A stretch of 64,000 nt of DNA, taken from the NCBI GenBank assembly GCA_036172665.1, contig CM069873.1, positions 42,378,001 to 42,442,000 on the forward strand. Reading direction: 5' to 3'. Origin of the DNA: Prosopocoilus inquinatus (taxonomy: Eukaryota > Arthropoda > Insecta > Coleoptera > Lucanidae). Made by a program: the position numbers and the translations under genes. Positions 1 through 64,000 of this stretch are shown in pieces. The notes under the pieces were generated by a model. It did no database searches. It had not been told where the DNA came from and saw only the letters and a list, made by a program, of their open reading frames with translations. Every line of letters begins with the position of its first letter. The stretch's first letter is position 1.

Positions 1-101
1 TAAAACTATTTCCAGCTTCAGCTGCGTCCGAAAACTTCGTATCTCACTTCAGAGTTACTGGAGCCCATCCAAACGTCAAATAACATGATAGATGAGTAAG
101 G

Positions 102-107
102 ATCGAT
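102..107. other. ATCGAT palindrome once per monomer (representative)
   Basis: The ATCGAT hexamer at bases 102-107 of the unit lies within GGATCGATT and is present in most monomers. Particular types have lost it through one substitution: GGATCTATT (monomers 63, 89 and relatives), GGATCAATT (10, 47, 73 and relatives) and GGATCGTTT (137, 190 and relatives). Its pattern of loss follows the HOR and could be used to check the predicted order. Confidence 0.8.
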
Positions 108-122
108 TACATTCATCACAGG

Positions 123-144
123 AACAACGCTAATACGTGTTGTT
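123..144. other. Dyad-symmetric element in each monomer (representative)
   Basis: Bases 123-144 of the monomer are an inverted repeat: an 8-base left arm AACAACGC, a 6-base centre TAATAC and an 8-base right arm GTGTTGTT. Seven of eight pairs are Watson-Crick and one is a G-T wobble. The element recurs in almost every monomer with small changes. It could form a cruciform or hairpin in single-stranded DNA or in a transcript. Use as a protein-binding site is not shown by the sequence. Confidence 0.6.
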
Positions 145-159
145 TCGTTTAAAACTATT
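143..159 (+). other. CENP-B-box-like 17-mer across the monomer junction (weak)
   Basis: The junction TTTCGTTTAAAACTATT matches 11 of 17 positions of the mammalian CENP-B box (YTTCGTTGGAARCGGGA). It keeps TTCG, the central A and the C of the essential core but lacks the final GGG. Six monomers with a G at the junction, starting at 1193, 6706, 10580, 34420, 37698 and 57965, reach 12 of 17. The GGG is important for binding in mammals, so this is a resemblance only and may be chance. Confidence 0.25.
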
Positions 160-271
160 TCCAGCTTATGCTGCGTCCGAAAACGTCGTATCTCACTTCA
201 GAGTTACTGGAGTCCATCGAAACGTCAAATAACATGATAGATAAGTAAGGATCGATTAGATACAGCACAGG

Positions 272-293
272 AACAACACTAATGCGTGTTGTT
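272..293. other. Perfect-arm version of the dyad element (representative)
   Basis: In monomers that read AACAACAC instead of AACAACGC, the wobble becomes an A-T pair and the 8-base arms AACAACAC and GTGTTGTT are perfect around TAATGC. This form is first seen here and recurs at many monomers, for example those with ACACTAATGCG near 1,768, 2,365, 10,111 and 13,388. The change is a single substitution that improves the symmetry. Confidence 0.6.
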
Positions 294-3200
294 TCGTTTA
301 AAACTATTTCCAGCTCCTGCTGCGGCCAAAAACTTCGTATCTCACATCAGAGTTACTAGAGTCCATCGAAACGTCAAATAACATGATAGATGAGTAACGA
401 TCGATTAGATACATCACAGGAACAACGCTAATACGTGTTGTTTCGTTTAAAACTATTTCCAGCTTCTGCTGCGTCCGAAAATTTCGTATCTCACATTAGA
501 GTTATTGGAGTCCATCGAAACGTCAAATAACATAGTAGCTAAGTAAGGATCGATTAGGTACATCACAGGAACAACGCTAATACGTGTTGTTTCGTTCAAA
601 ACTATTTCCAGCTTCTGCTGCGTCCGAAAACTTTGTATCTCACATCAGAGTTACTAGAGTCCATCGAAACGCCAAATAACATGATAGATGGGTAAGGATC
701 GATTAGATACATCACAGGAACAACTCTAATGCGTGTTGTTTCGTTTAAAACTATCTCCAGCTTCTGCTGCGTCCGAAAACTTTGTATCTCACATCAGAGT
801 TACTGGAGTCCATCCAAACGTCAAATAACATGATAGATAAGTAAAGATCGATTAGATACATCACAGGAACAACGCTAATACGTGTTGTTTCGTTCAAAAC
901 TATTTCCAGCTTCTGCTGGGTAAGAGAACTTTGTATCTCACATCAGAGTTACTGGAGTCCATCCAAACGTCAAATACCATGATAGATGAGTAAGGATCGA
1001 TTAGACACATCACAGGAACAACGCTAATACGTATTGTTTCGTTTAAAACTATTTCCAGCTTCTGCTGCGTCCGAAAATTTCGTATCTCACATTAGAGTTA
1101 CTGGAGTCCATCGAAACGTCAAATAACATAGTAGCTAAGTAAGGATCGATTAGATACATCACAGGAACAACGCTAATACGTGTTGTTTCGTTGAAAACTA
1201 TTTCCAGCTCCTGCTGCGTCCAAAAACTTCGTATATCACATCAGAGTTACTAGAGTCCATCGAAACGTCAAATAACATGATAGATGAGTAAGGATCGATT
1301 AGTTACATCACAGGAACAATGCTAATGCGTGTTGTTTCATTTAAAACTATTTCCAGCTTCTGCTGCGTCCGAAAATTTCGTATCTCACATTAGAGTTACT
1401 GGAGTCCATCGAAACGTCAAATAACATAGTAGCTAAGTAAGGATCAATTAGATACATCACAGGAACAACGCTAATACGTGTTGCTTCGTTTAAAACTATT
1501 TCCAGCTCCTGCTGCGCCCAAAAACTTCGTATCTTACATCAGAGTTACTAGAGTCCATCGAAACGTCAAATAACATGATAGATAAATAAGGATCGATTAG
1601 ATACATCACACGAACAACGCTAATGCGTGTTGTTTCGTTTAAAACTATTTCCAGCTCCTGCTGCGTCCAAAAACTTCGTATCTCACATCAGAGTTACTAG
1701 AGTCCATCCAAACGTCAAATAACATGATAGATGAGTAAGGATCGATTAGATACATCACAGGAACAACACTAATGCGTGCTGTTTCGTTTAAAACTATTTC
1801 CAGCTCCTGCTGCGTCCAAAAACTTCGTATCTCACATCAGAGTTACTAGAGTCCATCGAAACTTCAAATAACATGATAGGTGAGTAAGGATCGATTAGAT
1901 ACATCACAGGAACAACGCTAATACGTGTTGTTTTGTTTAAAACTATTTCCAGCTTCTGCTGCGTCTGAAAATTTCGTATCTCACATTAGAGTTATTGGAG
2001 TCCATCGAAACGTCAAATAACATGATAGATGAGTAAGGATCGATTAGATACATCACAGGAACAACGCTAATGCGTGTTGTTTCGTTTAAAACTATCTCCA
2101 GCTTCTGCTGCGTCCGAAAACTTTGTATCTCACATCAGAGTTACTGGAGACCATCCAAACGTCAAATAACATGATAGATAAGTAAGGATCGATTAGATAC
2201 ATCACAGGAACAACGCTAATACGTGTTGTTTCGTTCAAAACTATTTCCAGCTTCTGCTGCGTCCGAAAATTTCCTATCTCACATTAGAGTTACTGGAGTC
2301 CATCGAAACGTCAAATAACATCGTAGCTAAGTAAGGATCGATTAGATACATCACAGGAACAACACTAATGCGTGCTGTTTCGTTTAAAACTATTTCCAGC
2401 TCCTGCTGCGTCCAAAAACTTCGTATCTCACATCAGAGTTACTAGAGTCCATCGAAACGTCAAATAACATGATAGATGAGTAAGGATCGATTAGATACAT
2501 CACAGGAACAACGCTAATACGTGTTGTTTCGTTCAAAACTATTTCCAGCTTCTGCTGCGTCCGAAAACTTTGTATCTCACATCAGAGTTACTGGAGTCCA
2601 TCGAAACGCCAAATAACATGATAGATGAGTAAGGATCGATTAGATACATCACAGGAACAACGCTAATGCGTGTTGTTTCGTTTAAAACTATCTCCAGCTT
2701 CTGCTGCGTCCGAAAACTTTGTATCTCACATCAGAGTTACTGGAGTCCATCCAAACGTCAAATAACATGATAGATAAGTAAGGATCGATTAGATACATCA
2801 CAGGAACAACGCTAATACGTGTTGTTTCGTTCAAAACTATTTCCAGCTTCTGCTGCGTCCGAGAACTTTGTATCTCACATCAGAGTTACTGGAGTGCATC
2901 CAAACGTCAAATAACATGATAGATAAGTAAGGATCGATTAGATACATCACAGGAACAACGCTAATGCGTGTTGTTTCTTTTAAAACTATTTCCAGCTTCT
3001 GCTGCGTCCGAAAATTTCGTATCTCACATCAGAGTTACTGGAGTCCATCGAAACGTCAAATAACATGATAGATGAGTAAGGATCGATTAGATACATCACA
3101 GGAACAACGCTAATACGTGTTGTTTCGATCAAAACTATTTCCAGCTTCTGCTGCGTCCGAGAACTTTGTATCTCACATCAGAGTTACTGGAGTCCATCCA

Positions 3201-5513
3201 AACGTCAGATAACATGATAGATAAGTAAGGATCGATTAGATACATCACAGGAACAACGCTAATACGTGTTGTTTCGTTCAAAACTATTTCCAGCTTCTGC
3301 TGCGTCCGAGAACTTTGTATCTCACATCAGAGTTACTGGAGTCCATCCAAACGTCAAATAACATGATAGATGAGTAAGGATCGATTAGACACATCACAGG
3401 AACAACGCCAATACGTGTTGTTTCGTTTAAAACTATTTCCAGCTTCTGCTGCGTCCGAAAATTTCGTATCTCACATTAGAGTTACTGGAGTCCATCGAAA
3501 CGTCAAATAACATGATAGATGAGTAAGGATCGATTAGATACATCACAGGAACAACGCTAATACGTGCTGTTTCATTTAAAACTATTTCCAGCTTCAACTG
3601 CGTCCGAGAACTTCGTATCTCACATCAAAGTTACTGGAGTTCATCGAAACGCCAAATAACATGATAGATGAGTAAGGATCGATTAGATACATCACAGGAA
3701 CAACGCTAATGCGTGTTGTTTCATTTAAAACTATTTCCAGCTTCAGCTGGGTCCGAGAACTTCGTATCTCACTTCAGAGTTGCTGGAGCCCATCCAAACG
3801 TCAAATAACATGATAGATGAGTAAGGATCGATTACATTCATCACAGGAACTACGCTAATACGTGTTGTTTCATTTAAAACTATTTCCAGCTTCTGCTGCG
3901 TCCGAAAACTTTGTATCTCACATCAGAGTTACTGGAGTCCATCGAAACGTCAAATAACATAGTAGATAAGTAAGGATCGATTAGATACATCACAGGAACT
4001 GCGCTAATACGTGTTGTTTCGTTCAAAACTATTTCCAGCTTCTGCTGCCTCCGAGAACATTGTATCTCACATCAGAGTTACTGGAGTCCATTCAAACGTC
4101 AAATAACATGATAGATGAGTAAGGATCGATTAGATACATCACAGGAACAACGCTAATGCGTGTTGTTTCGTTTAAAACTATTTCCAGCTTCAGCTGCGCC
4201 CGAGAACTTCGTATCTCACATCAAAGTTACTGGAGTCCATCGAAACGCCAAATAACATGACAAATGAGTAAGGATCGATTAGATACATCACAGGAACAAC
4301 GCTAATGCGTGTTGTTTCGTTTAAAGATATTTCCAGCTTCTGCTGCGTCCGAAAATTTCGTATCTCACATTAGAGTTACTGGAGTCCATCGAAACGTCAA
4401 ATAGCATGATAGATGAGTAAGGATCGATTAGATACATCACAGGAACAACGCTAATGCGTGTTGTTTCATTTAAAACTATTTCCAGCTTCTGCTGCGTCCG
4501 AAAATTTCGTATCTCACATCAGAGTTACTGGAGTCCATCGAAACGTCAAATAACATAGTAGATAAGAAAGGATCGATTAGATACAGCACAGGAACAACAC
4601 TAATGCGTGTTGTTTCGTTTAAAACTATTTCCAGCTCCTGCTGCGTCCAAAAACTTCGTATCTCACATCAGAGTTACTAGAGTCCATCGAAACGTCAAAT
4701 AACATAGTAGCTAAATAAAAATCGATTAGATACATCACAGGAACAACGCTAGTACGTGTTGTTTCGTTCAAAACTATTTCCAGCTTCTGCTGCGTCCGAA
4801 AACTTTGTATCTCACATCAGAGTTACTGGAGTCCATCGAAACGCCAAATAACATGATAGATGAGTAAGGATCGATTAGATACATCACAGGAACAACGCTA
4901 ATGCGTGTTGTTTCGTTTAAAATTATCTCCAGCTTCTGCTGCGTCCGAAAACTTTGTATCTCACATCAGAGCTACTGGAGTCCATCCAAACGTCAGATAA
5001 CATGATAGATAAGTAAGGATCGATTAGATACATCACAGGAACAACGCTAATACGTGTTGTTTCGTTCATAACTATTTCCAGCTTCTGCTGCGTCCGAGAA
5101 CTTTGTATCTCACATCAGAGTTACTGGAGTCCATCCAAACGTCAAATAACATGATAGATGAGTAAGGATCGATTAGATACATCACAGGAACAACGCTAAT
5201 ACGTGTTGTTTCGTTTAAAACTATTTCCAGCTTCTGCTGCGTCCGAAAATTTCGTATCTCACATTAGAGTTACTGGAGTCCATCGAAACGTCAAATAACA
5301 TGATAGATGAGTAAGGATCGATTAGATACATCACAGGAACAACGCTAATACGTGCTGTTTCATTTAAAACTATTTCCAGCTTCAGCTGCGTCCGAGAACT
5401 TCGTATCTCACATCAAAGTTACTGGAGTCAATCGAAACGCCAAATAACATGATAGATAAGTAAGGATCGATTTGATACATCACAGGAACAACGCTAATGC
5501 GTGTTGTTTCATT

Positions 5514-8493
5514 TAAAACTATTTCCAGCTTCAGCTGCGTCCGAAAACTTCGTATCTCACTTCAGAGTTACTGGGGCCCATCCAAACGTCAAATAACATG
5601 ATAGATGAGTAAGGATCGATTACATTCATCACAGGAACAACGCTAATACGTGTTGTTTCGTTTAAAACTATTTCCAGCTTATGCTGCGTCCGAAAACGTC
5701 GTATCTCACTTCAGAGTTACTGGAGTCCATCGAAACGTCAAATGACATGATAGATAAGTAAGGATCGATTAGATACAGCACAGGAACAACACTAATGCGT
5801 GTTGTTTCGTTTAAAACTATTTCCAGCTCCTGCTGCGGCCAAAAACTTCGTATCTCACATCAGAGTTACTAGAGTCCATCGAAACGTCAAATAACATGAT
5901 AGATGAGTAACGATCGATTAGATACATCACAGGAACAACGCTAATACGTGTTGTTTCGTTTAAAACTATTTCCAGCTTCTGCTGCGTCCGAAAACGTCGT
6001 ATCTCACATTAGAGTTATTGGAGTCCATCGAAACGTCAAATAACATAGTAGCTAAGTAAGGATCGATTAGGTACATCACAGGAACAACGCTAATACGTGT
6101 TGTTTCGTTCAAAACTATTTCCAGCTTCTGCTGCGTCCGAAAACTTTGTATCTCACATCAGAGTTACTAGAGTCCATCGAAACGCCAAATAACATGATAG
6201 ATGGGTAAGGATCGATTAGATACATCACAGGAACAACGCTAATGCGTGTTGTTTCGTTTAAAACTATCTCCAGCTTCTGCTGCGTCCGAAAACTTTGTAT
6301 CTCACATCAGAGTTACTGGAGTCCATCCAAACGTCAAATAACATGATAGATAAGTAAAGATCGATTAGATACATCACAGGAACAACGCTAATACGTGTTG
6401 TTTCGTTCAAAACTATTTCCAGCTTCTGCTGGGTAAGAGAACTTTGTATCTCACATCAGAGTTACTGGAGTCCATCCAAACGTCAAATACCATGATAGAT
6501 GAGTAAGGATCGATTAGACACATCACAGGAACAACGCTAATACGTATTGTTTCGTTTAAAACTATTTCCAGCTTCTGCTGCGTCCGAAAATTTCGTATCT
6601 CACATTAGAGTTACTGGAGTCCATCGAAACGTCAAATAACATAGTAGCTAAGTAAGGATCGATTAGATACATCACAGGAACAACGCTAATACGTGTTGTT
6701 TCGTTGAAAACTATTTCCAGCTCCTGCTGCGTCCAAAAACTTCGTATATCACATCAGAGTTACTAGAGTCCATCGAAACGTCAAATAACATGATAGATGA
6801 GTAAGGATCGATTAGTTACATCACAGGAACAATGCTAATGCGTGTTGTTTCATTTAAAACTATTTCCAGCTTCTGCTGCGTCCGAAAATTTCGTATCTCA
6901 CATTAGAGTTACTGGAGTCCATCGAAACGTCAAGTAACATAGTAGCTAAGTAAGGATCAATTAGATACATCACAGGAACAACGCTAATACGTGTTGCTTC
7001 GTTTAAAACTATTTCCAGCTCCTGCTGCGCCCAAAAACTTCGTATCTTACATCAGAGTTACTAGAGTCCATCGAAACGTCAAATAACATGATAGATAAAT
7101 AAGGATCGATTAGATACATCACACGAACAACGCTAATGCGTGTTGTTTCGTTTAAAACTATTTCCAGCTCCTGCTGCGTCCAAAAACTTCGTATCTCACA
7201 TCAGAGTTACTAGAGTCCATCCAAACGTCAAATAACATGATAGATGAGTAAGGATCGATTAGATACATCACAGGAACAACACTAATGCGTGCTGTTTCGT
7301 TTAAAACTATTTCCAGCTCCTGCTGCGTCCAAAAACTTCGTATCTCACATCAGAGTTACTAGAGTCCATCGAAACTTCAAATAACATGATAGGTGAGTAA
7401 GGATCGATTAGATACATCACAGGAACAACGCTAATGCGTGTTGTTTTGTTTAAAACTATTTCCAGCTTCTGCTGCGTCTGAAAATTTCGTATCTCACATT
7501 AGAGTTATTGGAGTCCATCGAAACGTCAAATAACATGATAGATGAGTAAGGATCGATTAGATACATCACAGGAACAACGCTAATGCGTGTTGTTTCGTTT
7601 AAAACTATCTCCAGCTTCTGCTGCGTCCGAAAACTTTGTATCTCACATCAGAGTTACTGGAGACCATCCAAACGTCAAATAACATGATAGATAAGTAAGG
7701 ATCGATTAGATACATCACAGGAACAACGCTAATACGTGTTGTTTCGTTCAAAACTATTTCCAGCTTCTGCTGCGTCCGAAAATTTCCTATCTCACATTAG
7801 AGTTACTGGAGTCCATCGAAACGTCAAATAACATCGTAGCTAAGTAAGGATCGATTAGATACATCACAGGAACAACACTAATGCGTGCTGTTTCGTTTAA
7901 AACTATTTCCAGCTCCTGCTGCGTCCAAAAACTTCGTATCTCACATCAGAGTTACTAGAGTCCATCGAAACGTCAAATAACATGATAGATGAGTAAGGAT
8001 CGATTAGATACATCACAGGAACAACGCTAATGCGTGTTGTTTCGTTTAAAACTATTTCCAGCTTCTGCTGCGTCCGAAAATTTCGTATCTCACATTAGAG
8101 TTACTGGAGTCCATCGAAACGTCAAATAACATGATAGATGAGTAAGGATCGATTAGATACATCACAGGAACAACGCTAATACGTGCTATTTCATTTAAAA
8201 CTATTTCCAGCTTCAACTGCGTCCGAGAACTTCGTATCTCACATCAAAGTTACTGGAGTTCATCGAAACGCCAAATAACATGATAGATGAGTAAGGATCG
8301 ATTAGATACATCACAGGAACAACGCTAATGCGTGTTGTTTCATTTAAAACTATTTCCAGCTTCAGCTGGGTCCGAGAACTTCGTATCTCACTTCAGAGTT
8401 GCTGTAGCCCATTCAAACGTCAAATAACATGATAGATGAGTAAGGATCGATTACATTCATCACAGGAACTACGCTAATACGTGTTGTTTCATT
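5514..8493 (+). repeat. Second copy of the 37-monomer unit, internally deleted (U2)
   Basis: Monomers 38-54 follow monomers 1-17 one for one with few substitutions. Monomer 55 then matches monomer 24, so six whole monomers (894 bp) present in U1 are absent here. Monomers 55-57 match 24-26, after which the order departs from U1 at monomer 58, which has CTTTTTATC and GTCCGTCC. Small differences from U1 include GGGGCCC for GGAGCCC near 5573 and AAAACGTCG for AAAATTTCG near 5996. The missing block is a whole number of monomers, as expected for unequal exchange in register. Confidence 0.85.
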
Positions 8494-9387
8494 TAAAACT
8501 ATTTCCAGCTTCTGCTGCGTCCGAAAACTTTTTATCTCACATCAGAGTTACTGGAGTCCGTCCAAACGTCAAATAACATGATAGATGAGTAAGGATCGAT
8601 TACATTCATCACAGGAACTACGCTAATACGTGTTGTTTCGTTTAAAACTATTTCCAGTTTCTGCTGCGTCCGAAAACGTCGTATCTCACATCAGAGTTAC
8701 TGGAGTCCATCGAAACGTCAAATAACATGATAGATAAGTAAGGATCGATTAGATACAGCACAGGAACAACAGTAATGCGTGTGGTTTCGTTTAAAACTAT
8801 TTCCAGCCCCTGCTGCGTCCAAAACCTTCGTATCTCAGATCAGAGTTACTAGAGTCCATCGAAGCGTCAAATAACATGATAGATGAGTAAGGATCGATTA
8901 GATACATCACAGGAACAACGCTAATGCGTGTTGTTTCGTTTAAAACTATTTCCAGCTCCTGCTGCGTCCGAAAATTTCGTATCTCACATTAGAGTTACTG
9001 GAGTCCATCGAAACGTCAAATAACATGATAGATGAGTAAGGATCGATTAGATACATCACAGGAACAACGCTAATGCGTGTTGTTTCGTTTAAAACTATTT
9101 CCAGCTTCTGCTGCGTCCTAAAATTTCGTATCTCACATTAGAGTTACTGGAGTCCATCGAAACGTCAAATAACATGATAGATGAGTAAGGATCGATTAGA
9201 TACATCACAGGAACAACGCTAATGCGTGTTGTTTCGTTTAAAACTATTTCCAGCTTCTGCTGCGTCCGAAAATTTCGTATCTCACATTAGAGTTACTGGA
9301 GTCCATCGAAACGTCAAATAACATGGTAGCTAAGTAAGGATCTATTAGATACATCACAGGAACAACGCTAATACGTGTTGCTTCGTT
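6408..9387 (+). repeat. 20-monomer run, first copy (26-monomer HOR)
   Basis: Monomers 44-63 run from the CTGGGTAAGAG type through the TTCAACTG and CTTCAGCTGGG types to the ATGGTAGCTAAG / GGATCTATTAG type. The same 20 variants in the same order start again 26 monomers (3,874 bp) later at 10,282. Differences are isolated substitutions, for example CAAGTAAC for CAAATAAC near 6,930. This is a local HOR nested inside the larger duplicated segment. Confidence 0.82.
8196..9387 (+). repeat. Eight-monomer cassette, occurrence 1
   Basis: Monomers 56-63 form a fixed series of eight: TTCAACTG; CTTCAGCTGGG with GCTGTAGCCC; CTTTTTATC with GTCCGTCC; CAGTTTCTG with AAAACGTCG; CAGCCCCTG with CTCAGATC; CTCCTGCTG with AAAATTTCG; GTCCTAAAATTTCG; and ATGGTAGCTAAG with GGATCTATT. 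The series recurs at monomers 82-89, 127-134, 180-187, 242-249, 264-271, 309-316 and 423-430, the last cut by the window edge. It is the most often reused block in the window. Confidence 0.82.
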
Positions 9388-9983
9388 TAAAACTATTTCC
9401 AGCTTCTGCTGCGTCCGAAACCTTTGTATCTCACATCAGAGTTACTGGAGTCCATCCAAACGTCTAATAACATGATAGATAAGTAAAGATCGATTAGATA
9501 CATCACAGGAACAACGCTAATACGTGTTGTTTCGTTCAAAACTATTTCCAGCTTCTGCTGGGTAAGAGAACTTTGTATCTCACATCAGAGTTACTGGAGT
9601 CCATCCAAACGTCAAATACCATGATAGATGAGTAAGGATCGATTAGACACATCACAGGAACAACGCTAATACGTATTGTTTCGTTTAAAACTATTTCCAG
9701 CTTCTGCTGCGTCCGAAAATTTCGTATCTCACATTAGAGTTACTGGAGTCCATCGAAACGTCAAATAACATAGTAGCTAAGTAAGGATCGATTAGATACA
9801 TCACAGGAACAACGCTAATACGTGTTGTTTCGTTTAAAACTATTTCCAGCTTCTGCTGCGTCCTAAAATTTCGTATCTCACATTAGAGTTACTGGAGTCC
9901 ATCGAAACGTCAAATAACATGATAGATGAGTAAGGATCGATTAGATACATCACAGGAACAACGCTAATGCGTGTTGTTTCGTT
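9388..9983 (+). repeat. Four-monomer segment present in X1, absent from X2
   Basis: Monomers 64-67 have no counterpart in the second copy of the large duplication: monomer 63 matches 249, while the next matched monomer, 68, pairs with 250. Monomer 64 (AAACCTTTG in its first half, CAAACGTCTAATAAC and AAGTAAAGATCG in its second) is nearly the same as monomer 69, and 65 as 70. The segment therefore looks like a small local duplication of five monomers kept here and lost, or never formed, in the other copy. Confidence 0.72.
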
Positions 9984-10281
9984 TAAAACTATTTCCAGCT
10001 CCTGCTGCGCCCAAAAACTTCGTATCTCACATCAGAGTTACTAGAGTCCATCGAAACGTCAAATAACATGATAGATGAGTAAGGATCGATTAGATACATC
10101 ACAGGAACAACACTAATGCGTGTTGTTTCGTTTAAAACTATTTCCAGCTTCTGCTGCGTCCGAAACCTTTGTATCTCACATCAGAGTTACTGGAGTCCAT
10201 CCAAACGTCTAATAACATGATAGATAAGTAAAGATCGATTAGATACATCACAGGAACAACGCTAATACGTGTTGTTTCGTT

Positions 10282-13261
10282 CAAAACTATTTCCAGCTTC
10301 TGCTGGGTAAGAGAACTTTGTATCTCACATCAGAGTTACTGGAGTCCATCCAAACGTCAAATACCATGATAGATGAGTAAGGATCGATTAGACACATCAC
10401 AGGAACAACGCTAATACGTATTGTTTCGTTTAAAACTATTTCCAGCTTCTGCTGCGTCCGAAAATTTCGTATCTCACATTAGAGTTACTGGAGTCCATCG
10501 AAACGTCAAATAACATAGTAGCTAAGTAAGGATCGATTAGATACATCACAGGAACAACGCTAATACGTGTTGTTTCGTTGAAAACTATTTCCAGCTCCTG
10601 CTGCGTCCAAAAACTTCGTATATCACATCAGAGTTACTAGAGTCCATCGAAACGTCAAATAACATGATAGATGAGTAAGGATCGATTAGTTACATCACAG
10701 GAACAATGCTAATGCGTGTTGTTTCATTTAAAACTATTTCCAGCTTCTGCTGCGTCCGAAAATTTCGTATCTCACATTAGAGTTACTGGAGTCCATCGAA
10801 ACGTCAAATAACATAGTAGCTAAGTAAGGATCAATTAGATACATCACAGGAACAACGCTAATACGTGTTGCTTCGTTTAAAACTATTTCCAGCTCCTGCT
10901 GCGCCCAAAAACTTCGTATCTTACATCAGAGTTACTAGAGTCCATCGAAACGTCAAATAACATGATAGATAAATAAGAATCGATTAGATACATCACACGA
11001 ACAACGCTAATGCGTGTTGTTTCGTTTAAAACTATTTCCAGCTCCTGCTGCGTCCAAAAACTTCGTATCTCACATCAGAGTTACTAGAGTCCATCCAAAC
11101 GTCAAATAACATGATAGATGAGTAAGGATCGATTAGATACATCACAGGAACAACACTAATGCGTGCTGTTTCGTTTAAAACTATTTCCAGCTCCTGCTGC
11201 GTCCAAAAACTTCGTATCTCACATCAGAGTTACTAGAGTCCATCGAAACTTCAAATAACATGATAGGTGAGTAAGGATCGATTAGATACATCACAGGAAC
11301 AACGCTAATACGTGTTGTTTTGTTTAAAACTATTTCCAGCTTCTGCTGCGTCTGAAAATTTCGTATCTCACATTAGAGTTATTGGAGTCCATCGAAACGT
11401 CAAATAACATGATAGATGAGTAAGGATCGATTAGATACATCACAGGAACAACGCTAATGCGTGTTGTTTCGTTTAAAACTATCTCCAGCTTCTGCTGCGT
11501 CCGAAAACTTTGTATCTCACATCAGAGTTACTGGAGACCATCCAAACGTCAAATAACATGATAGATAAGTAAGGATCGATTAGATACATCACAGGAACAA
11601 CGCTAATACGTGTTGTTTCGTTCTAAACTATTTCCAGCTTCTGCTGCGTCCGAAAATTTCCTATCTCACATTAGAGTTACTGGAGTCCATCGAAACGTCA
11701 AATAACATCGTAGCTAAGTAAGGATCGATTAGATACATCACAGGAACAACACTAATGCGTGCTGTTTCGTTTAAAACTATTTCCAGCTCCTGCTGCGTCC
11801 AAAAACTTCGTATCTCACATCAGAGTTACTAGAGTCCATCGAAACGTCAAATAACATGATAGATGAGTAAGGATCGATTAGATACATCACAGGAACAACG
11901 CTAATGCGTGTTGTTTCGTTTAAAACTATTTCCAGCTTCTGCTGCGTCCGAAAATTTCGTATCTCACATTAGAGTTACTGGAGTCCATCGAAACGTCAAA
12001 TAACATGATAGATGAGTAAGGATCGATTAGATACATCACAGGAACAACGCTAATACGTGCTGTTTCATTTAAAACTATTTCCAGCTTCAACTGCGTCCGA
12101 GAACTTCGTATCTCACATCAAAGTTACTGGAGTTCATCGAAACGCCAAATAACATGATAGATGAGTAAGGATCGATTAGATACATCACAGGAACAACGCT
12201 AATGCGTGTTGTTTCATTTAAAACTATTTCCAGCTTCAGCTGGGTCCGAGAACTTCGTATCTCACTTCAGAGTTGCTGTAGCCCATTCAAACGTCAAATA
12301 ACATGATAGATGAGTAAGGATCGATTACATTCATCACAGGAACTACGCTAATACGTGTTGTTTCATTTAAAACTATTTCCAGCTTCTGCTGCGTCCGAAA
12401 ACTTTTTATCTCACATCAGAGTTACTGGAGTCCGTCCAAACGTCAAATAACATGATAGATGAGTAAGGATCGATTACATTCATCACAGGAACTACGCTAA
12501 TACGTGTTGTTTCGTTTAAAACTATTTCCAGTTTCTGCTGCGTCCGAAAACGTCGTATCTCACATCAGAGTTACTGGAGTCCATCGAAACGTCAAATAAC
12601 ATGATAGATAAGTAAGGATCGATTAGATACAGCACAGGAACAACAGTAATGCGTGTGGTTTCGTTTAAAATTATTTCCAGCCCCTGCTGCGTCCAAAACC
12701 TTCGTATCTCAGATCAGAGTTACTAGAGTCCATCGAAGCGTCAAATAACATGATAGATGAGTAAGGATCGATTAGATACATCACAGGAACAACGCTAATG
12801 CGTGTTGTTTCGTTTAAAACTATTTCCAGCTCCTGCTGCGTCCGAAAATTTCGTATCTCACATTAGAGTTACTGGAGTCCATCGAAACGTCAAATAACAT
12901 GATAGATGAGTAAGGATCGATTAGATACATCACAGGAACAACGCTAATGCGTGTTGTTTCGTTTAAAACTATTTCCAGCTTCTGCTGCGTCCTAAAATTT
13001 CGTATCTCACATTAGAGTTACTGGAGTCCATCGAAACGTCAAATAACATGATAGATGAGTAAGGATCGATTAGATACATCACAGGAACAACGCTAATGCG
13101 TGTTGTTTCGTTTAAAACTATTTCCAGCTTCTGCTGCGTCCGAAAATTTCGTATCTCACATTAGAGTTACTGGAGTCCATCGAAACGTCAAATAACATGG
13201 TAGCTAAGTAAGGATCTATTAGATACATCACAGGAACAACGCTAATACGTGTTGCTTCGTT
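10282..13261 (+). repeat. 20-monomer run, second copy (26-monomer HOR)
   Basis: Monomers 70-89 repeat monomers 44-63 at an offset of 26. The CTGGGTAAGAG monomer (70), GTATATCAC (72), GTTTTGTTT with GTCTGAAAA (77), TTTCCTATC (79), TTCAACTG (82), CTTTTTATC (84) and ATGGTAGCTAAG (89) all fall where expected. Private changes include ATAAGAATCG near 10,975, GTTCTAAAC at 11,620 and AAAATTATTTCC near 12,668. The eight-monomer cassette occupies its last eight units, 12070-13261. Confidence 0.82.
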
Positions 13262-52300: not shown

Positions 52301-52680
52301 AAAACTCTTTCCAGCTCCTGCTGCGCCCAAAAACTTCGTATCTTACATCAGAGTTACTAGAGTCCATCGAAACGTCAAATAATATGATAGATAAATAAGG
52401 ATCGATTAGATACATCACAGGAAAAACGCTAATGCGTGTTGTTTCATTTAAAACTATTTCCAGCTCCTGCTGCGTCCAAAACCTTCGTATCTCACATCAG
52501 AGTTACTAGAGTCCATCGAAGCGTCAAATAACATGATAGATGAGTAAGGATCGATTAGATACATCACAGGAACAGCGCTAATGCGTGTTGTTTCATTTAA
52601 AACTATTTCCAGATTCTGCTGCGTTCGAAAATTTCGTCTCTCACATCAGAGTTACTGGAGTCCATCGAAACGTCAAATAA

Positions 52681-54984: not shown

Positions 54985-57900
54985 TAAAACTATTTCCAGC
55001 TTCAGCTGGGTCCGAGAACTTCGTATCTCACTTCAGAGTTGCTGGAGCCCATCCAAACGTCAAATAACATGATAGATGAGTAAGGATCGATTACATTCAT
55101 CACAGGAACTACGCTAATACGTGTTGTTTCATTTAAAACTATTTCCAGCTTCTGCTGCGTCCGAAAACTTTGTATCTCACATCAGAGTTACTGGAGTCCA
55201 TCGAAACGTCAAATAACATAGTAGATAAGTAAGGATCGATTAGATACATCACAGGAACTGCGCTAATACGTGTTGTTTCGTTCAAAACTATTTCCAGCTT
55301 CTGCTGCCTCCGAGAACATTGTATCTCACATCAGAGTTACTGGAGTCCATTCAAACGTCAAATAACATGATAGATGAGTAAGGATCGATTAGATACATCA
55401 CAGGAACAACGCTAATGCGTGTTGTTTCGTTTAAAACTATTTCCAGCTTCAGCTGCGCCCGAGAACTTCGTATCTCACATCAAAGTTACTGGAGTCCATC
55501 GAAACGCCAAATAACATGATAAATGAGTAAGGATCGATTAGATACATCACAGGAACAACGCTAATGCGTGTTGTTTCGTTTAAAGCTATTTCCAGCTTCT
55601 GCTGCGTCCGAAAATTTCGTATCTCACATTAGAGTTACTGGAGTCCATCGAAACGTCAAATAGCATGATAGATGAGTAAGGATCGATTAGATACATCACA
55701 GGAACAACGCTAATGCGTGTTGTTTCGTTTAAAACTATTTCCAGCTTCTGCTGCGTCCGAAAATTTCGTATCTCACATCAGAGTTACTGGAGTCCATCGA
55801 AACGTCAAATAACATAGTAGATAAGAAAGGATCGATTAGATACAGCACAGGAACAACACTAATGCGTGTTGTTTCGTTTAAAACTATTTCCAGCTCCTGC
55901 TGCGTCCAAAAACTTCGTATCTCACATCAGAGTTACTAGAGTCCATCGAAACGTCAAATAACATAGTAGCTAAATAAAAATCGATTAGATACATCACAGG
56001 AACAACGCTAGTACGTGTTGTTTCGTTCAAAACTATTTCCAGGTTCTGCTGCGTCCGAAAACTTTGTATCTCACATCAGAGTTACTGGAGTCCATCGAAA
56101 CGCCAAATAACATGATAGATGAGTAAGGATCGATTAGATACATCACAGGAACAACGCTAATGCGTGTTGTTTCGTTTAAAATTATCTCCAGCTTCTGCTG
56201 CGTCCGAAAACTTTGTATCTCACATCAGAGCTACTGGAGTCCATCCAAACGTCAGATAACATGATAGATAAGTAAGGATCGATTAGATACATCACAGGAA
56301 CAACGCTAATACGTGTTGTTTCGTTCATAACTATTTCCAGCTTCTGCTGCGTCCGAGAACTTTGTATCTCACATCAGAGTTACTGGAGTCCATCCAAACG
56401 TCAAATAACATGATAGATGAGTAAGGATCGATTAGATACATCACAGGAACAACGCTAATACGTGTTGTTTCGTTTAAAACTATTTCCAGCTTCTGCTGCG
56501 TCCGAAAATTTCGTATCTCACATTAGAGTTACTGGAGTCCATCGAAACGTCAAATAACATGATAGATGAGTAAGGATCGATTAGATACATCACAGGAACA
56601 ACGCTAATACGTGCTGTTTCATTTAAAACTATTTCCAGCTTCAGCTGCGTCCGAGAACTTCGTATCTCACATCAAAGTTACTGGAGTCAATCGAAACGCC
56701 AAATAACATGATAGATAAGTAAGGATCGATTTGATACATCACAGGAACAACGCTAATGCTTGTTGTTTCATTTAAAACTATTTCCAGCTTCAGCTGCGTC
56801 CGAAAACTTCGTATCTCACTTCAGAGTTACTGGAGCCCATCCAAACGTCAAATAACATGATAGATGAGTAAGGATCGATTACATTCATCACAGGAACAAC
56901 GCCAATACGTGTTGTTTCGTTTAAAACTATTTCCAGCTTATGCTGCGTCCGAAAACGTCGTATCTCACTTCAGAGTTACTGGAGTCCATCGAAACGTCAA
57001 ATAACATGATAGATAAGTAAGGATCGATTAGATACAGCACAGGAACAACACTAATGCGTGTTGTTTCGTTTAAAACTATTTCCAGCTCCTGCTGCGGCCA
57101 AAAACTTCGTATCTCACATCAGAGTTACTAGAGTCCATCGAAACGTCAAATAACATGATAGATGAGTAACGATCGATTAGATACATCACAGGAACAACGC
57201 TAATACGTGTTGTTTCGTTTAAAACTATTTCCAGCTTCTGCTGCGTCCGAAAATTTCGTATCTCACATTAGAGTTATTGGAGTCCATCGAAACGTCAAAT
57301 AACATAGTAGCTAAGTAAGGATCGATTAGGTACATCACAGGAACAACGCTAATACGTGTTGTTTCGTTCAAAACTATTTCCAGCTTCTGCTGCGTCCGAA
57401 AACTTTGTATCTCACATCAGAGTTACTAGAGTCCATCGAAACGCCAAATAACATGATAGATGGGTAAGGATCGATTAGATACATCACAGGAACAACGCTA
57501 ATGCGTGTTGTTTCGTTTAAAACTATCTCCAGCTTCTGCTGCGTCCGAAAACTTTGTATCTCACATCAGAGTTACTGGAGTCCATCCAAACGTCAAATAA
57601 CATGATAGATAAGTAAAGATCGATTAGATACATCACAGGAACAACGCTAATACGTGTTGTTTCGTTCAAAACTATTTCCAGCTTCTGCTGGGTAAGAGAA
57701 CTTTGTATCTCACATCAGAGTTACTGGAGTCCATCCAAACGTCAAATACCATGATAGATGAGTAAGGATCGATTAGACACATCACAGGAACAACGCTAAT
57801 ACGTATTGTTTCGTTTAAAACTATTTCCAGCTTCTGCTGCGTCCGAAAATTTCGTATCTCACATTAGAGTTACTGGAGTCCATCGAAACGTCAAATAACA

Positions 57901-59752
57901 TAGTAGCTAAGTAAGGATCGATTAGATACATCACAGGAACAACGCTAATACGTGTTGTTTCGTTGAAAACTATTTCCAGCTTGTGCTGCGTCCAAAAACT
58001 TCGTATATCACATCAGAGTTACTAGAGTCCATCGAAACGTCAAATAACATGATAGATGAGTAAGGATCGATTAGTTACATCACAGGAACAATGCTAATGC
58101 GTGTTGTTTCATTTAAAACTATTTCCAGCTTCTGCTGCGTCCGAAAATTTCGTATCTCACATTAGAGTTACTGGAGTCCATCGAAACGTCAAATAACATA
58201 GTAGCTAAGTAAGGATCAATTAGATACATCACAGGAACAACGCTAATACGTGTTGCTTCGTTTAAAACTATTTCCAGCTCCTGCTGCGCCCAAAAACTTC
58301 GTATCTTACATCAGAGTTACTAGAGTCCATCGAAACGTCAAATAACATGATAGATAAATAAGGATCGATTAGATACATCACACGAACAACGCTAATGCGT
58401 GTTGTTTCGTTTAAAACTATTTCCAGCTCCTGCTGCGTCCAAAAACTTCGTATCTCACATCAGAGTTACTAGAGTCCATCCAAACGTCAAATAACATGAT
58501 AGATGAGTAAGGATCGATTAGATACATCACAGGAACAACACTAATGCGTGCTGTTTCGTTTAAAACTATTTCCAGCTCCTGCTGCGTCCAAAAACTTCGT
58601 ATCTCACATCAGAGTTACTAGAGTCCATCGAAACTTCAAATAACATGATAGGCGAGTAAGGATCGATTAGATACATCACAGGAACAACGCTAATACGTGT
58701 TGTTTTGTTTAAAACTATTTCCAGCTTCTGCTGCGTCTGAAAATTTCGTATCTCACATTAGAGTTATTGGAGTCCATCGAAACGTCAAATAACATGATAG
58801 ATGAGTAAGGATCGATTAGATACATCACAGGAACAACGCTAATGCGTGTTGTTTCGTTTAAAACTATCTCCAGCTTCTGCTGCGTCCGAAAACTTTGTAT
58901 CTCACATCAGAGTTACTGGAGACCATCCAAACGTCAAATAACATGATAGAAGAGTAAGGATCGATTAGATACATCACAGGAACAACGCTAATACGTGTTG
59001 TTTCGTTCAAAACTATTTCCAGCTTCTGCTGCGTCCGAAAATTTCCTATCTCACATTAGAGTTACTGGAGTCCATCGAAACGTCAAATAACATCGTAGCT
59101 AAGTAAGGATCGATTAGATACATCACAGGAACAACACTAATGCGTGCTGTTTCGTTTAAAACTGTTTCCAGCTCCTGCTGCGTCCAAAAACTTCGTATCT
59201 CACATCAGAGTTACTAGAGTCCATCGAAACGTCAAATAACATGATAGATGAGTAAGGATCGATTAGATACATCACAGGAACAACGCTAATACGTGTTGTT
59301 TCGTTCAAAACTATTTCCAGCTTCTGCTGCGTCCGAAAACTTTGTATCTCACATCAGAGTTACTGGAGTCCATCGAAACGCCAAATAACATGATAGATGA
59401 GTAAGGATCGATTAGATACATCACAGGAACAACGCTAATGCGTGTTGTTTCGTTTAAAACTATCTCCAGCTTGTGCTGCGTCCGAAAACTTTGTATCTCA
59501 CATTAGAGTTACTGGAGTCCATCCAAACGTCAAATAACATGATAGATAAGTAAGGATCGATTAGATACATCACAGGAACAACGCTAATACGTGTTGCTTC
59601 GTTCAAAACTATTTCCAGCTTCTGCTGCGTCCGAGAACTTTGTATCTCACATCAGAGTTACTGGAGTGCATCCAAACGTCAAATAACATGATAGATAAGT
59701 AAGGATCGATTAGATACATCACAGGAACAACGCTAATGCGTGTTGTTTCATT
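54985..59752 (+). repeat. Return of the U1/U2 variant order (block E)
   Basis: Monomers 370-398 match monomers 26-54 at a constant offset of 344 monomers (51,256 bp, plus the 3-bp insertion). They include the U1/U2 boundary itself: the CTGCCTCCGAGAACATTG monomer (near 4,043 and 55,302), monomer 38 (5,514 and 56,773), CTGGGTAAGAG (44 and 388) and TTTCCTATC. Monomers 399-401 then match 18-20 of U1, so the six-monomer segment missing from U2 is at least partly present here. Private changes include AATGCTTGTTG near 56,757, CCAGGTTCTG near 56,040 and ATAGGCGAG near 58,650. Confidence 0.82.
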
Positions 59753-60050
59753 TAAAACTATTTCCAGCTTCTGCTGCGTCCGAAAATTTCGTATCTCACA
59801 TCAGAGTTACTGGAGTCCATCGAAACGTCAAATAACATAGTAGATAAGTAAGGATCGATTAGATACATCACAGGAACAACGCTAATACGTGTTGTTTCGT
59901 TCAAAACTATTTCCAGCTTCTGCTGCGTCCGAGAACATTGTATCTCACATCAGAGTTACTGGAGTCCATTCAAACGTCAAATAACATGATAGATGAGTAA
60001 GGATCGATTAGATACATCACAGGAACAACGCTAATGCGTGTTGTTTCGTT
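59753..60050 (+). repeat. Two monomers linking block E to the ten-monomer duplication
   Basis: Monomer 402 (AAAATTTCG, CACATCAG, AGTAGATAAG) and monomer 403 (GAGAACATTG, CCATTCAAACG) form a pair seen in the same order elsewhere, for example near 15.2-15.5 kb and, as a related pair, inside each copy of the following duplication near 60.8-61.0 and 62.3-62.5 kb. Confidence 0.7.
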
Positions 60051-61540
60051 TAAAACTATTTCCAGCTTCTGCTGCGTCCGAAAATTTCGTATCTCACATT
60101 AGAGTTACTGGAGTCCATCGAAACGTCAAATAACATGATAGATGAGTAAGGATCGATTAGATACATCACAGGAACAACGCTAATACGTGCTGTTTCATTT
60201 AAAAGTATTTCCAGCTTCAACTGCGTCCGAGAACTTCGTATCTTACATCAAAGTTACTGGAGTTCATCGAAACGCCAAATAACATGATAGATGAGTAAGG
60301 ATCGATTAGATACATCACAGGAACAACGCTAATGCGTGTTGTTTCATTTAAAACTATTTCCAGCTTCAGCTGGGTCCGAGAACTTCGTATCTCACTTCAG
60401 AGTTGCTGGAGCCCATCCAAACGTCAAATAACATGATAGATGAGTAAGGATCGATTACATTCATCACAGGAACTACGCTAATACGTGTTGTTTCGTTTAA
60501 AACTATTTCCAGCTTCTGCTGCGTCCGAAAACTTTGTATCTCACATCAGAGTTACTGGAGTCCATCCAAACGTCAAATAACATGATAGATAAGTAAGGAT
60601 CGATTAGATACATCACAGGAACAACGCTAATACGTGTTGTTTCGTTCAAAACTATTTCCAGTTTCTGCTGCGTCCGAGAACTTTGTATCTCACATCAGAG
60701 TTACTGGAGTGCATCCAAACGTCAAATAACATGATAGACAAGTAAGGATCGATTAGATACATCACAGGAACAACGCTAATGCGTGTTGTTTCATTTAAAA
60801 CTATTTCCAGCTTCTGCTGCGTCCGAAAATTTCGTATCTCACATCAGAGTTACTGGAGTCCATCGAAACGTCAAATAACATAGTAGATAAGTAAGGATCG
60901 ATTAGATACATCACAGGAACAACGATAATACGTGTTGTTTCGTTCAAAACTATTTCCAGCTTCTGCTGCGTCCGAGAACATTGTATCTCACATCAGAGTT
61001 ACTGGAGTCCATTCAAACGTCAAATAACATGATAGATGAGTAAGGATCGATTAGATACATCACAGGAACAACGCTAATGCGTGTTGTTTCGTTTAAAACT
61101 ATTTCTAGCTTCAGTTGCGCCCGAGAACTTCGTATCTCACATCAAAGTTACTGGAGTTCATCGAAACGCCAAATAACATGATAAATGAGTAAGGATCGAT
61201 TAGATACATCACAGGAACAACGCTAATGCGTGTTGTTTCGTTTAAAACTATTTCCAGCTTCTGCTGCGTCTGAAAATTTCGTATCTCACATTAGAGTTAC
61301 TGGAGTCCATCGAAACGTCAAATAACATGATAGATGAGTAAGGATCGATTAGATACATCACAGGAACAACGCTAATACGTGCTGTTTCATTTAAAACTAT
61401 TTCCAGCTTCAACTGCGTCCGAGAACTTCGTATCTCACATCAAAGTTACTGGAGTTCATCGAAACGCCAAATAACATGATAGATGAGTAAGGATCGATTA
61501 GATACATCACAGGAACAACGCTAATGCGTGTTGTTTCATT
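60051..61540 (+). repeat. Ten-monomer tandem duplication, first copy
   Basis: Monomers 404-413 (1,490 bp) are followed directly by a nearly identical second set. Markers at exactly 1,490 bp offset are AAAAGTATTTCC, GATAGACAAG, AACGATAATACG, TTTCTAGCTTCAGTTGCG and GTCTGAAAATTTCG. I saw only one or two differences between copies; here GAACTTCGTATC near 60,229 is GAACTACGTATC in the second copy. Such low divergence marks it as one of the youngest events in the window. Confidence 0.9.
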
Positions 61541-63030
61541 TAAAACTATTTCCAGCTTCTGCTGCGTCCGAAAATTTCGTATCTCACATTAGAGTTACTG
61601 GAGTCCATCGAAACGTCAAATAACATGATAGATGAGTAAGGATCGATTAGATACATCACAGGAACAACGCTAATACGTGCTGTTTCATTTAAAAGTATTT
61701 CCAGCTTCAACTGCGTCCGAGAACTACGTATCTTACATCAAAGTTACTGGAGTTCATCGAAACGCCAAATAACATGATAGATGAGTAAGGATCGATTAGA
61801 TACATCACAGGAACAACGCTAATGCGTGTTGTTTCATTTAAAACTATTTCCAGCTTCAGCTGGGTCCGAGAACTTCGTATCTCACTTCAGAGTTGCTGGA
61901 GCCCATCCAAACGTCAAATAACATGATAGATGAGTAAGGATCGATTACATTCATCACAGGAACTACGCTAATACGTGTTGTTTCGTTTAAAACTATTTCC
62001 AGCTTCTGCTGCGTCCGAAAACTTTGTATCTCACATCAGAGTTACTGGAGTCCATCCAAACGTCAAATAACATGATAGATAAGTAAGGATCGATTAGATA
62101 CATCACAGGAACAACGCTAATACGTGTTGTTTCGTTCAAAACTATTTCCAGTTTCTGCTGCGTCCGAGAACTTTGTATCTCACATCAGAGTTACTGGAGT
62201 GCATCCAAACGTCAAATAACATGATAGACAAGTAAGGATCGATTAGATACATCACAGGAACAACGCTAATGCGTGTTGTTTCATTTAAAACTATTTCCAG
62301 CTTCTGCTGCGTCCGAAAATTTCGTATCTCACATCAGAGTTACTGGAGTCCATCGAAACGTCAAATAACATAGTAGATAAGTAAGGATCGATTAGATACA
62401 TCACAGGAACAACGATAATACGTGTTGTTTCGTTCAAAACTATTTCCAGCTTCTGCTGCGTCCGAGAACATTGTATCTCACATCAGAGTTACTGGAGTCC
62501 ATTCAAACGTCAAATAACATGATAGATGAGTAAGGATCGATTAGATACATCACAGGAACAACGCTAATGCGTGTTGTTTCGTTTAAAACTATTTCTAGCT
62601 TCAGTTGCGCCCGAGAACTTCGTATCTCACATCAAAGTTACTGGAGTTCATCGAAACGCCAAATAACATGATAAATGAGTAAGGATCGATTAGATACATC
62701 ACAGGAACAACGCTAATGCGTGTTGTTTCGTTTAAAACTATTTCCAGCTTCTGCTGCGTCTGAAAATTTCGTATCTCACATTAGAGTTACTGGAGTCCAT
62801 CGAAACGTCAAATAACATGATAGATGAGTAAGGATCGATTAGATACATCACAGGAACAACGCTAATACGTGCTGTTTCATTTAAAACTATTTCCAGCTTC
62901 AACTGCGTCCGAGAACTTCGTATCTCACATCAAAGTTACTGGAGTTCATCGAAACGCCAAATAACATGATAGATGAGTAAGGATCGATTAGATACATCAC
63001 AGGAACAACGCTAATGCGTGTTGTTTCATT
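61541..63030 (+). repeat. Ten-monomer tandem duplication, second copy
   Basis: Monomers 414-423 repeat 404-413. The join is placed within the first 20 or so bases of monomer 414: monomer 413 ends in CATTTAAAAC as monomer 423 does, but is followed by CTTCTGCTG instead of CTTCAGCTGGG. After 63,030 the order moves to the eight-monomer cassette in its GCTGTAGCCCATTC form, which differs from the GCTGGAGCCCATCC form inside this duplication. Confidence 0.9.
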
Positions 63031-64000
63031 TAAAACTATTTCCAGCTTCAGCTGGGTCCGAGAACTTCGTATCTCACTTCAGAGTTGCTGTAGCCCATTC
63101 AAACGTCAAATAACATGATAGATGAGTAAGGATCGATTACATTCATCACAGGAACTACGCTAATACGTGTTGTTTCATTTAAAACTATTTCCAGCTTCTG
63201 CTGCGTCCGAAAACTTTTTATCTCACATCAGAGTTACTGGAGTCCGTCCAAACGTCAAATAACATGATAGATGAGTAAGGATCGATTACATTCATCACAG
63301 GAACTACGCTAATACGTGTTGTTTCGTTTAAAACTATTTCCAGTTTCTGCTGCGTCCGAAAACGTCGTATCTCACATCAGAGTTACTGGAGTCCATCGAA
63401 ACGTCAAATAACATGATAGATAAGTAAGGATCGATTAGATACAGCACAGGAACTACAGTAATGCGTGTGGTTTCGTTTAAAACTATTTCCAGCCCCTGCT
63501 GCGTCCAAAACCTTCGTATCTCACATCAGAGTTACTAGAGTCCATCGAAGCGTCAAATAACATGATAGATGAGTAAGGATCGATTAGATACATCACAGGA
63601 ACAACGCTAATGCGTGTTGTTTCGTTTAAAACTATTTCCAGCTCCTGCTGCGTCCGAAAATTTCGTATCTCACATTAGAGTTACTGGAGTCCATCGAAAC
63701 GTCAAATAACATGATAGATGAGTAAGGATCGATTAGATACATCACAGGAACAACGCTAATGCGTGTTGTTTCGTTTAAAACTATTTCCAGCTTCTGCTGC
63801 GTCCTAAAATTTCTTATCTCACATTAGAGTTACTGGAGTCCATCGAAACGTCAAATAACATGATAGATGAGTAAGGATCGATTAGATACATCACAGGAAC
63901 AACGCTAATGCGTGTTGTTTCGTTTAAAACTATTTCCAGCTTCTGCTGCGTCCGAAAATTTCGTATCTCACATTAGAGTTACTGGAGTCCATCGAAACGT
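62882..64000 (+). repeat. Eight-monomer cassette, last occurrence, cut by the window end
   Basis: Monomers 423-430 show the series TTCAACTG, CTTCAGCTGGG with GCTGTAGCCC, CTTTTTATC, CAGTTTCTG, CAGCCCCTG, CTCCTGCTG, GTCCTAAAATTTC and the start of the next type. Private changes include GGAACTACAGTAATG near 63,450, TCTCACATC for TCTCAGATC near 63,520 and TTTCTTATC near 63,812. The cassette first marked at 8196 is joined here directly to the end of the ten-monomer duplication. Confidence 0.8.
63925..64000 (+). repeat. Partial final monomer
   Basis: Only the first 76 bases of monomer 430 lie in the window, ending at GAAACGT. It is an AAAATTTCG / CACATTAG type. The array clearly continues beyond the window. 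Confidence 0.95.

What the first reader, a model, noticed from the sequence alone, without database searches (positions are those of the whole stretch)
1..64000. Nested higher-order repeats at 10, 22/26, 37, 44/45, 53 and about 182 monomers
The order of variant monomers recurs at several whole-monomer periods layered inside each other: 1.49, 3.3/3.9, 5.5, 6.6/6.7, 7.9 and about 27 kb. There is no single HOR length, unlike classic human alpha-satellite arrays. It looks like successive amplification of ever larger blocks, with older HORs carried inside newer ones.
Basis: seen in the sequence. Interest (0 to 1): 0.75.

Follow-up and report, generated by a model that had tools for sequence, protein, structure and literature searches.

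The report
Satellite array built by block duplications
This stretch is nothing but about 430 copies of a 149-base repeat, and the apparent nested periods are mostly the traces of a handful of one-off tandem block copies that can be put in order of age, which is ordinary satellite-DNA evolution seen unusually clearly.

Summary
They are not reiterated periods: for no offset from 1 to 214 do three same-class monomers follow each other. The 429 complete monomers fall into 119 homology classes and read as a few single tandem duplications with in-register breakpoints; the two best-resolved junctions lie in chimeric monomers.

Several "periods" are composites: 26 is a 22-monomer duplication plus a 4-monomer insertion; 43-46 is one 45-monomer duplication with monomer indels; 182-186 is a ~133-monomer (19.8 kb) duplication later stretched by the 53-monomer one.

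Site patterns and a shared junction give the order: 37, 45 and 22 first, then 133, then 53. Older blocks are carried inside the 133 block, but block size does not keep growing. A simulation of random single duplications and deletions resembles the pattern; multi-copy amplification rarely does. A weak 14-monomer signal (z 4.7) is left unexplained.

The organism is unidentified; the own-genome search did not complete. Verdict: a new member of a known kind, with a legible duplication history.

The parts
1..64000 (.). uninterrupted 149-bp satellite array, all units in one orientation (429 complete monomers plus a 76-bp tail)
   Evidence: TRF; monomer cut
1..5513 (.). block P, first copy (37 monomers, 0-based indices 0-36)
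5514..8046 (.). block P, partial second copy (monomers 37-53); offset 37; 8 differences in 17 monomers; its junction is not resolved
5365..25181 (.). ~133-monomer (19.8 kb) duplication, copy 1 (monomers 36-168)
   Evidence: 33 differences in 122 monomer pairs
33079..52597 (.). ~133-monomer duplication, copy 2 (monomers 222-352); offset from copy 1 is now 182-186 because of the later 53-monomer insertion
6259..9387 (.). 22-monomer duplication, left member in copy 1 (monomers 42-62)
9388..9983 (.). 4-monomer insertion (monomers 63-66, identical to monomers 68, 69, 70 and 61) that turns the 22 offset into 26
10133..13261 (.). 22-monomer duplication, right member in copy 1 (monomers 68-88)
33973..37250 (.). 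22-monomer duplication, left member in copy 2 (monomers 228-249)
37251..40528 (.). 22-monomer duplication, right member in copy 2 (monomers 250-271); length equals offset to within 35 bp; breakpoint at bp 34-69 of monomer 250 (chimera 1 mismatch, single parents 8 and 3)
11772..18476 (.). 45-monomer duplication, left member in copy 1 (monomers 79-123); junction monomer 123 is chimeric, break at bp 96-124
18477..25181 (.). 45-monomer duplication, right member in copy 1 (monomers 124-168)
38890..45594 (.). 45-monomer duplication, left member in copy 2 (monomers 261-305); junction monomer 305 chimeric at the same place
45595..52597 (.). 45-monomer duplication, right member in copy 2 (monomers 306-352)
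18626..26522 (.). 53-monomer (7.9 kb) duplication, first copy (monomers 125-177)
   Evidence: 9 differences in 53 monomers
26523..34419 (.). 53-monomer duplication, second copy (monomers 178-230); junction at bp 94-134 of monomer 177
25033..25181 (.). chimeric junction monomer of the 133 duplication (monomer 168): 5' part like monomer 353, 3' part like monomer 35, break at bp 50-86
   Evidence: 0 mismatches as a chimera versus 5 and 4 for single parents
32930..33078 (.). the same chimeric junction carried in the second 53-monomer copy (monomer 221)
   Evidence: 168 and 221 identical
25927..26075 (.). monomer 174 (like 227 at 33824-33972 but for one base): in-place patch, likely gene conversion
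54985..59752 (.). distant copy of block P sequence (monomers 369-400), offsets 344 and 381, most diverged resolved copy
60051..61540 (.). 10-monomer duplication, first copy (monomers 403-412)
   Evidence: 1 difference in 10 monomers
61541..63030 (.). 10-monomer duplication, second copy (monomers 413-422)

Best explanation
A satellite array of eukaryotic type, possibly (peri)centromeric, that has turned over by single tandem block duplications of about 10 to 133 monomers (1.5-20 kb), small monomer gains and losses, and short in-place gene conversions, guided by homology between misaligned 149-bp units. Shown here: block pairs, in-register junctions, chimeric junction monomers for the 45 and 133 events, relative order. 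Inferred: that the exchange was unequal sister-chromatid or break-induced recombination, that the host is a eukaryote, and that the array is centromeric. Reading: an early array with block P (37 monomers) and block Q (about 45 monomers); then P, Q and a 22-monomer P+Q stretch were each duplicated (order among these three not resolved); then about 133 monomers containing the Q and 22-monomer duplications were duplicated; one monomer was converted; then 53 monomers spanning the 133 junction were duplicated, stretching its offset from about 133 to 182-186. The 10-monomer duplication is separate and probably young.
For: Block edges are sharp: mismatches go from 0-3 per monomer inside blocks to typically about 10 outside. 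For the 53, 22 and 10 events block length exceeds the offset by only 40, 35 and 92 bp, as a tandem duplication requires. Junction monomers of the 45 and 133 events fit as two-parent chimeras with 0 mismatches, against 4 and 15-16, and 5 and 4, for single parents; 0-0.03% of 4000 random parent pairs do as well. Breakpoints differ between events (bp 94-134, 50-86, 34-69, 96-124), so no single cut site is needed. Order: patterns 7:0 (45 before 133), 4:0 (22 before 133), 2:0 (37 before 133), and the 133 junction present in both 53 copies. Divergence agrees: 53 1.14/kb, 133 1.82, 22 2.75 and 3.05, 45 2.49 and 3.36, 37 3.16, the 344/381 copy 4.40 and 4.03. Monomer 227 is class 4 with a class-7-like patch, 1 residual difference; it lies in both 53 copies but not at monomer 41, so it falls between the 133 and 53 events. 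A random single duplication/deletion simulation brackets the observed counts.
Against: Divergence intervals of neighbouring events overlap (53: 0.52-2.16/kb, 133: 1.25-2.55/kb), and pairs in differing classes were dropped (9 of 44 in the 45 event, copy 1), which lowers the figure; only site patterns and junctions order the events, and the informative sites are few (7, 4, 2). The 53 junction's chimera rests on one base (1 mismatch to one parent alone), and the 10 and 37 junctions show no chimera at all (a single parent fits as well). A weak excess at lag 14 (z 4.7; 34 pairs with at most 3 mismatches and one run of four triples at monomers 273-276) suggests an older short-range layer that this scheme does not cover. 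Monomers 20-24, 353-368 and 401-402 are not explained. No reads or relatives were available, so very young duplications could be assembly artefacts. The simulation's size range was my choice, its median number of offsets is 33 against 48 observed, and it gives zero triples in only 30% of runs.
Confidence: 0.8

Rival explanations
1. True nested higher-order repeats: successive amplification of ever larger units, each reiterated many times.
For: All named offsets exist; the 22 and 45 duplications are carried inside the 133 block; a weak lag-14 excess may be the remnant of an older, shorter layer.
Against: 0 offsets of 1-214 with three same-class monomers in a row; looser triples are within permuted counts; a multi-copy amplification simulation gave zero triples in 3% of 40 accepted runs against 30% of 40 for single duplications; the 53 event is smaller and younger than the 133 event.
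Confidence: 0.1
2. Assembly artefact: some block pairs are haplotypes or mis-joined overlaps written twice.
For: The 53 and 10 pairs differ by only 9 and 1 bases, a level that allelic copies could show; in-register joins are what an assembler would also make.
Against: The 45 and 22 junctions occur twice, in diverged copies of the 133 block, and share site patterns, so at least those look biological; a conversion separates the 133 and 53 events.
Confidence: 0.1
3. Long gene-conversion or transposition-like copying of blocks to distant places, rather than tandem duplication.
For: Short in-place conversions do occur, and the 344/381 copy is far away.
Against: For the 53, 22 and 10 events length equals offset, and for the 133 event the copies abut once the 53 insert is discounted; copying to a distant place does not require that.
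Confidence: 0.08

Closest known systems
Arabidopsis thaliana CEN178 satellite arrays (as described in the TRASH paper, PMC10199239, passages read)
   Same: Monomer of nucleosome-like length; higher-order structure reported as very many pairs of multi-monomer blocks (9,795,284 instances) rather than one fixed HOR; [quoted passage not shown]
   Different: Different unit length; sequences were not compared here. In this window few enough events lie in 64 kb to be ordered one by one.
Human alpha-satellite HOR arrays
   Same: Monomer of similar size class, multi-monomer blocks more alike than neighbouring monomers.
   Different: Human HORs repeat many times in tandem, with reported periods per chromosome (many-fold reiteration recalled; periods from TRASH passages); here no block exceeds two copies in a row and no complete CENP-B box is present.
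Trypanosoma brucei ~147-bp centromere repeats (CIR147), PMC1868937 (section 9 and passages read) and PMC3292466 (passages read)
   Same: Unit of about 147 bp (one passage says 149 bp for chromosome 4), AT content 59-62% against about 61% here, units over 90% alike, arrays of 20 to over 100 kb.
   Different: Two published 15-base CIR147 target sequences (PMC12975129, passages read) match the consensus monomer at only 9 and 11 of 15 bases, reached by 1680 and 46 of 2000 shuffles. Not the canonical repeat; a diverged relative is neither shown nor excluded.
Prunus pseudocerasus 149-bp satellite (PMC9653872, passages read)
   Same: Monomer length 149 bp.
   Different: Described there as lying at chromosome ends; its sequence is in a supplement I could not open, so it was not compared.

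Membership tests
Satellite DNA array | long head-to-tail array of similar units | tested here: met
   TRF whole window, period 149, 92% matches; 428 of 429 complete units exactly 149 bp
Classical higher-order repeat (alpha-satellite type) | multi-monomer unit reiterated three or more times in tandem | tested here: not met
   0 of offsets 1-214 with three same-class monomers in a row (units under 8 monomers not covered); looser triples within permuted counts
Higher-order repeat in the pairwise sense of TRASH | two blocks of at least 3 monomers with at most 5 variants per monomer pair | tested here: met
   the longest run has 53 monomers with at most 1 mismatch per monomer; definition from PMC10199239
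CENP-B-box satellites | 17-bp box with nine essential bases | tested here: not met
   best score 7 of 9 on either strand (1 site on +, 299 on -), none with 8 or 9; box consensus recalled
T. brucei canonical CIR147 | published target 15-mers present in the repeat | tested here: not met
   9 of 15 and 11 of 15 matches to the consensus; 10 and 11 in the first 6000 bases of the window
Prunus pseudocerasus 149-bp satellite | sequence identity | not tested
   sequence not in the text seen
Centromeric satellite | occupied by centromere or kinetochore chromatin | not testable with these tools
   no chromatin data, organism unknown

The most novel reading that the evidence does not exclude
The array is a datable record of satellite turnover: 310 of its 429 monomers are extra copies of the 119 classes, made by single homology-guided block duplications while the resolved copies diverged by only about 0.7-4.4 differences per kb, with breakpoints spread along the monomer and no preferred block size. 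That would make satellite growth a one-step random-duplication process, consistent with break-induced replication or unequal sister exchange, with no need for a HOR-forming mechanism.
Probability: 0.35. Interest if true: 0.45.

Novelty: new member of a known kind. Interest (0 to 1): 0.32.

Why it matters
How satellite arrays expand is usually argued from static patterns. Here one 64-kb stretch keeps enough variants to place several block duplications in order, map four of their breakpoints to intervals of 28-40 bp, and show that several apparent higher-order periods are sums of others. It is a caution against reading each off-diagonal of an identity plot as a separate HOR level.

Tried and rejected
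Identifying the organism failed. A conserved 24-base piece has 0 exact matches in viral contigs and genome contigs (the tool says records of the window's own or very near genomes may be left out), the consensus has no match among plasmids, and 12 conserved k-mers of 13-16 bases (both strands) appear in no paper held. Literature searches for a 149-bp satellite: one search listed one human paper (not opened), none, a Beta vulgaris paper (its 149 bp is a contig size) and a Prunus paper (a 149-bp satellite at chromosome ends, sequence not seen), another the T. brucei paper. The CIR147 comparison did not support identity. The ~48 and ~30 bp sub-repeats reported for CIR147 were looked for: lags 48 and 31 rank second and third inside the monomer but do not exceed shuffles. 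No Rfam match in 1-6000; the rest was not searched.

Germline CpG methylation decay was tested and not seen: CpG observed/expected 1.35, and of 52 private changes (classes of three or more copies only) 5 fall at CpG, 1 of them a transition. That argues mildly against a heavily CpG-methylated genome; it does not name one.

Raw base-level autocorrelation falls with lag, which I put down to the 3-bp insertion near 53692 breaking the register; monomer-level offsets were used instead. Rows dropped because classes differed: 1 of 123 pairs for the 133 event, 9 of 44 and 2 of 44 for the 45 event in copies 1 and 2, 1 of 32 slots in the 45 quartet and 1 of 17 in the P quartet (denominators follow from the ranges given to that call). 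Runs shorter than 8 monomers were not used for classes.
Full report
What is there. The window is a single uninterrupted array of a 149-bp unit in one orientation, 39% GC. Cutting at a conserved anchor gives 429 complete monomers, 428 of exactly 149 bp and one of 152 bp with a 3-bp insertion near 53692. Monomers average 92.4% identity to each other, and 159 are distinct. Monomer numbers below are 0-based; monomer i starts at 1+149i (plus 3 after monomer 360).

Check of the observation. The best score is 203; the maximum over 20 random orders was 12. There are also offsets 344 and 381 linking the two ends of the window, and many others that follow from these.

Why these are not periods. I joined monomers linked by runs of eight or more into homology classes: 119 classes, 29 of them single. 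For no offset 1-214 do three same-class monomers follow each other. That test cannot see units under 8 monomers. Under a looser cut (at most 3 mismatches between neighbours) offsets 11, 14, 22 and 172 show 3-6 triples; permuted orders give 4.4 such offsets on average, and 8 of 200 reach 6 at some offset. Lag 14 does stand out in mean identity (z 4.7), with 34 close pairs and one run of four triples at monomers 273-276; I read it as a faint older layer and do not explain it. Read in classes, the window is mainly two ancestral blocks, P (classes 0-36) and Q (about 45 classes), cut and repeated in pairs.

Which offsets are composite. In copy 2 of the large block the 22-monomer repeat is exact; in copy 1 four extra monomers (63-66) sit inside it and make the offset 26. 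Offsets 43-46 are one 45-monomer duplication with small gains and losses of monomers. Offset 182-186 equals about 133 plus 53: discounting the 53-monomer duplication, the block 36-168 and its copy abut.

Order of events. The 45 duplication predates the 133 one: at 7 sites the left members agree with each other and the right members with each other across the two copies, and 0 sites support another grouping (31 of 32 slots used). The 22 duplication likewise, 4 to 0 (21 slots); the 37 one 2 to 0 (16 of 17 slots used). The 133 junction lies in monomer 168, a chimera of a 353-like 5' part and a 35-like 3' part with 0 mismatches against 5 and 4 for either parent alone; monomer 221, its partner in the second 53 copy, is identical. 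The 53 duplication therefore came after the 133 one. A converted monomer (174/227), present in both 53 copies but not at 41, falls between them. Divergence follows the same order: 53 1.14 per kb (0.52-2.16), 133 1.82 (1.25-2.55), 22 2.75 and 3.05, 45 2.49 and 3.36, 37 3.16, 344/381 4.40 and 4.03; the 10-monomer pair has 1 difference in 10 monomers. Neighbouring intervals overlap, so the site patterns and the junction carry the argument. By themselves the three-way counts for 53 against 133 (4 shared against 3 private, and 1 against 2, in the two well-aligned stretches) do not decide that order.

Mechanism. Junctions stay in register, and at four of them the two parents share 28-40 bp of identity around the break: bp 94-134 (53), 50-86 (133), 34-69 (22) and 96-124 (45). 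The chimera is clear for 133 and 45, fair for 22 (1 mismatch against 8 and 3), rests on one base for 53, and is not seen for 10 and 37. There is no single cut site. This fits unequal homologous exchange or break-induced replication; sequence alone does not separate these. A simulation of random single tandem duplications and deletions (block sizes 1-150, my choice), stopped at 110-125 classes, gave 16-50 offsets with runs of eight (median 33, observed 48), a longest run of 37-131 (observed 53), up to 5-21 copies (observed 9) and zero triples in 30% of 40 accepted runs; amplification by 2-5 extra copies gave zero triples in 3% of 40.

What it is like. [quoted passage not shown] By that definition this array has HORs, as Arabidopsis CEN178 does; by the classical reiterated definition none was found. 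HOR structure was reported in 76 of 171 species with Sanger data (PMC4053949, passages). [quoted passage not shown] I see no new kind of system here.

Identity. The organism remains unknown. The T. brucei ~147-bp repeats are close in length, AT content and array size (PMC1868937, PMC3292466), but two published CIR147 15-mers match the consensus at only 9 and 11 of 15 bases; the second is reached by 46 of 2000 shuffles, so a distant link is not excluded. A 149-bp Prunus satellite is on record but its sequence was not seen. No decay of CpG is seen. The search of the window's own genome did not complete.

Noticed in passing
53641-53792: The only complete monomer out of 149-bp register: 152 bp, with a 3-bp insertion near 53692 that looks like local slippage.
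   Followed up: partly
25927-26075 and 33824-33972: Monomers 174 and 227 are class-4 units whose middle (at least bp 35-95) was replaced in place by class-7-like sequence: a probable short gene conversion. Monomers 112/156 and 295/341 differ by a similar patch (7 and 8 differences).
   Followed up: yes
1-64000: CpG observed/expected is 1.35 and CpG is not a hotspot among private changes (5 of 52), which would be unusual for a heavily CpG-methylated genome.
   Followed up: partly
52598-54984: Monomers 353-368 are mostly close relatives of scattered single monomers (several of monomers 18-24), and no block duplication found here explains them.
   Followed up: partly
1-64000: Weak periodicity at 14 monomers (mean-identity z 4.7; one run of four triples at monomers 273-276), possibly an older layer inside block Q.
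   Followed up: partly
1-64000: On the minus strand 299 sites match 7 of the 9 essential CENP-B box bases, none 8 or 9; probably chance.
   Followed up: partly
9388-9983: Four-monomer insertion (63-66) in which each monomer is identical to a nearby one (68, 69, 70 and 61), as if two small exchanges followed each other.
   Followed up: partly
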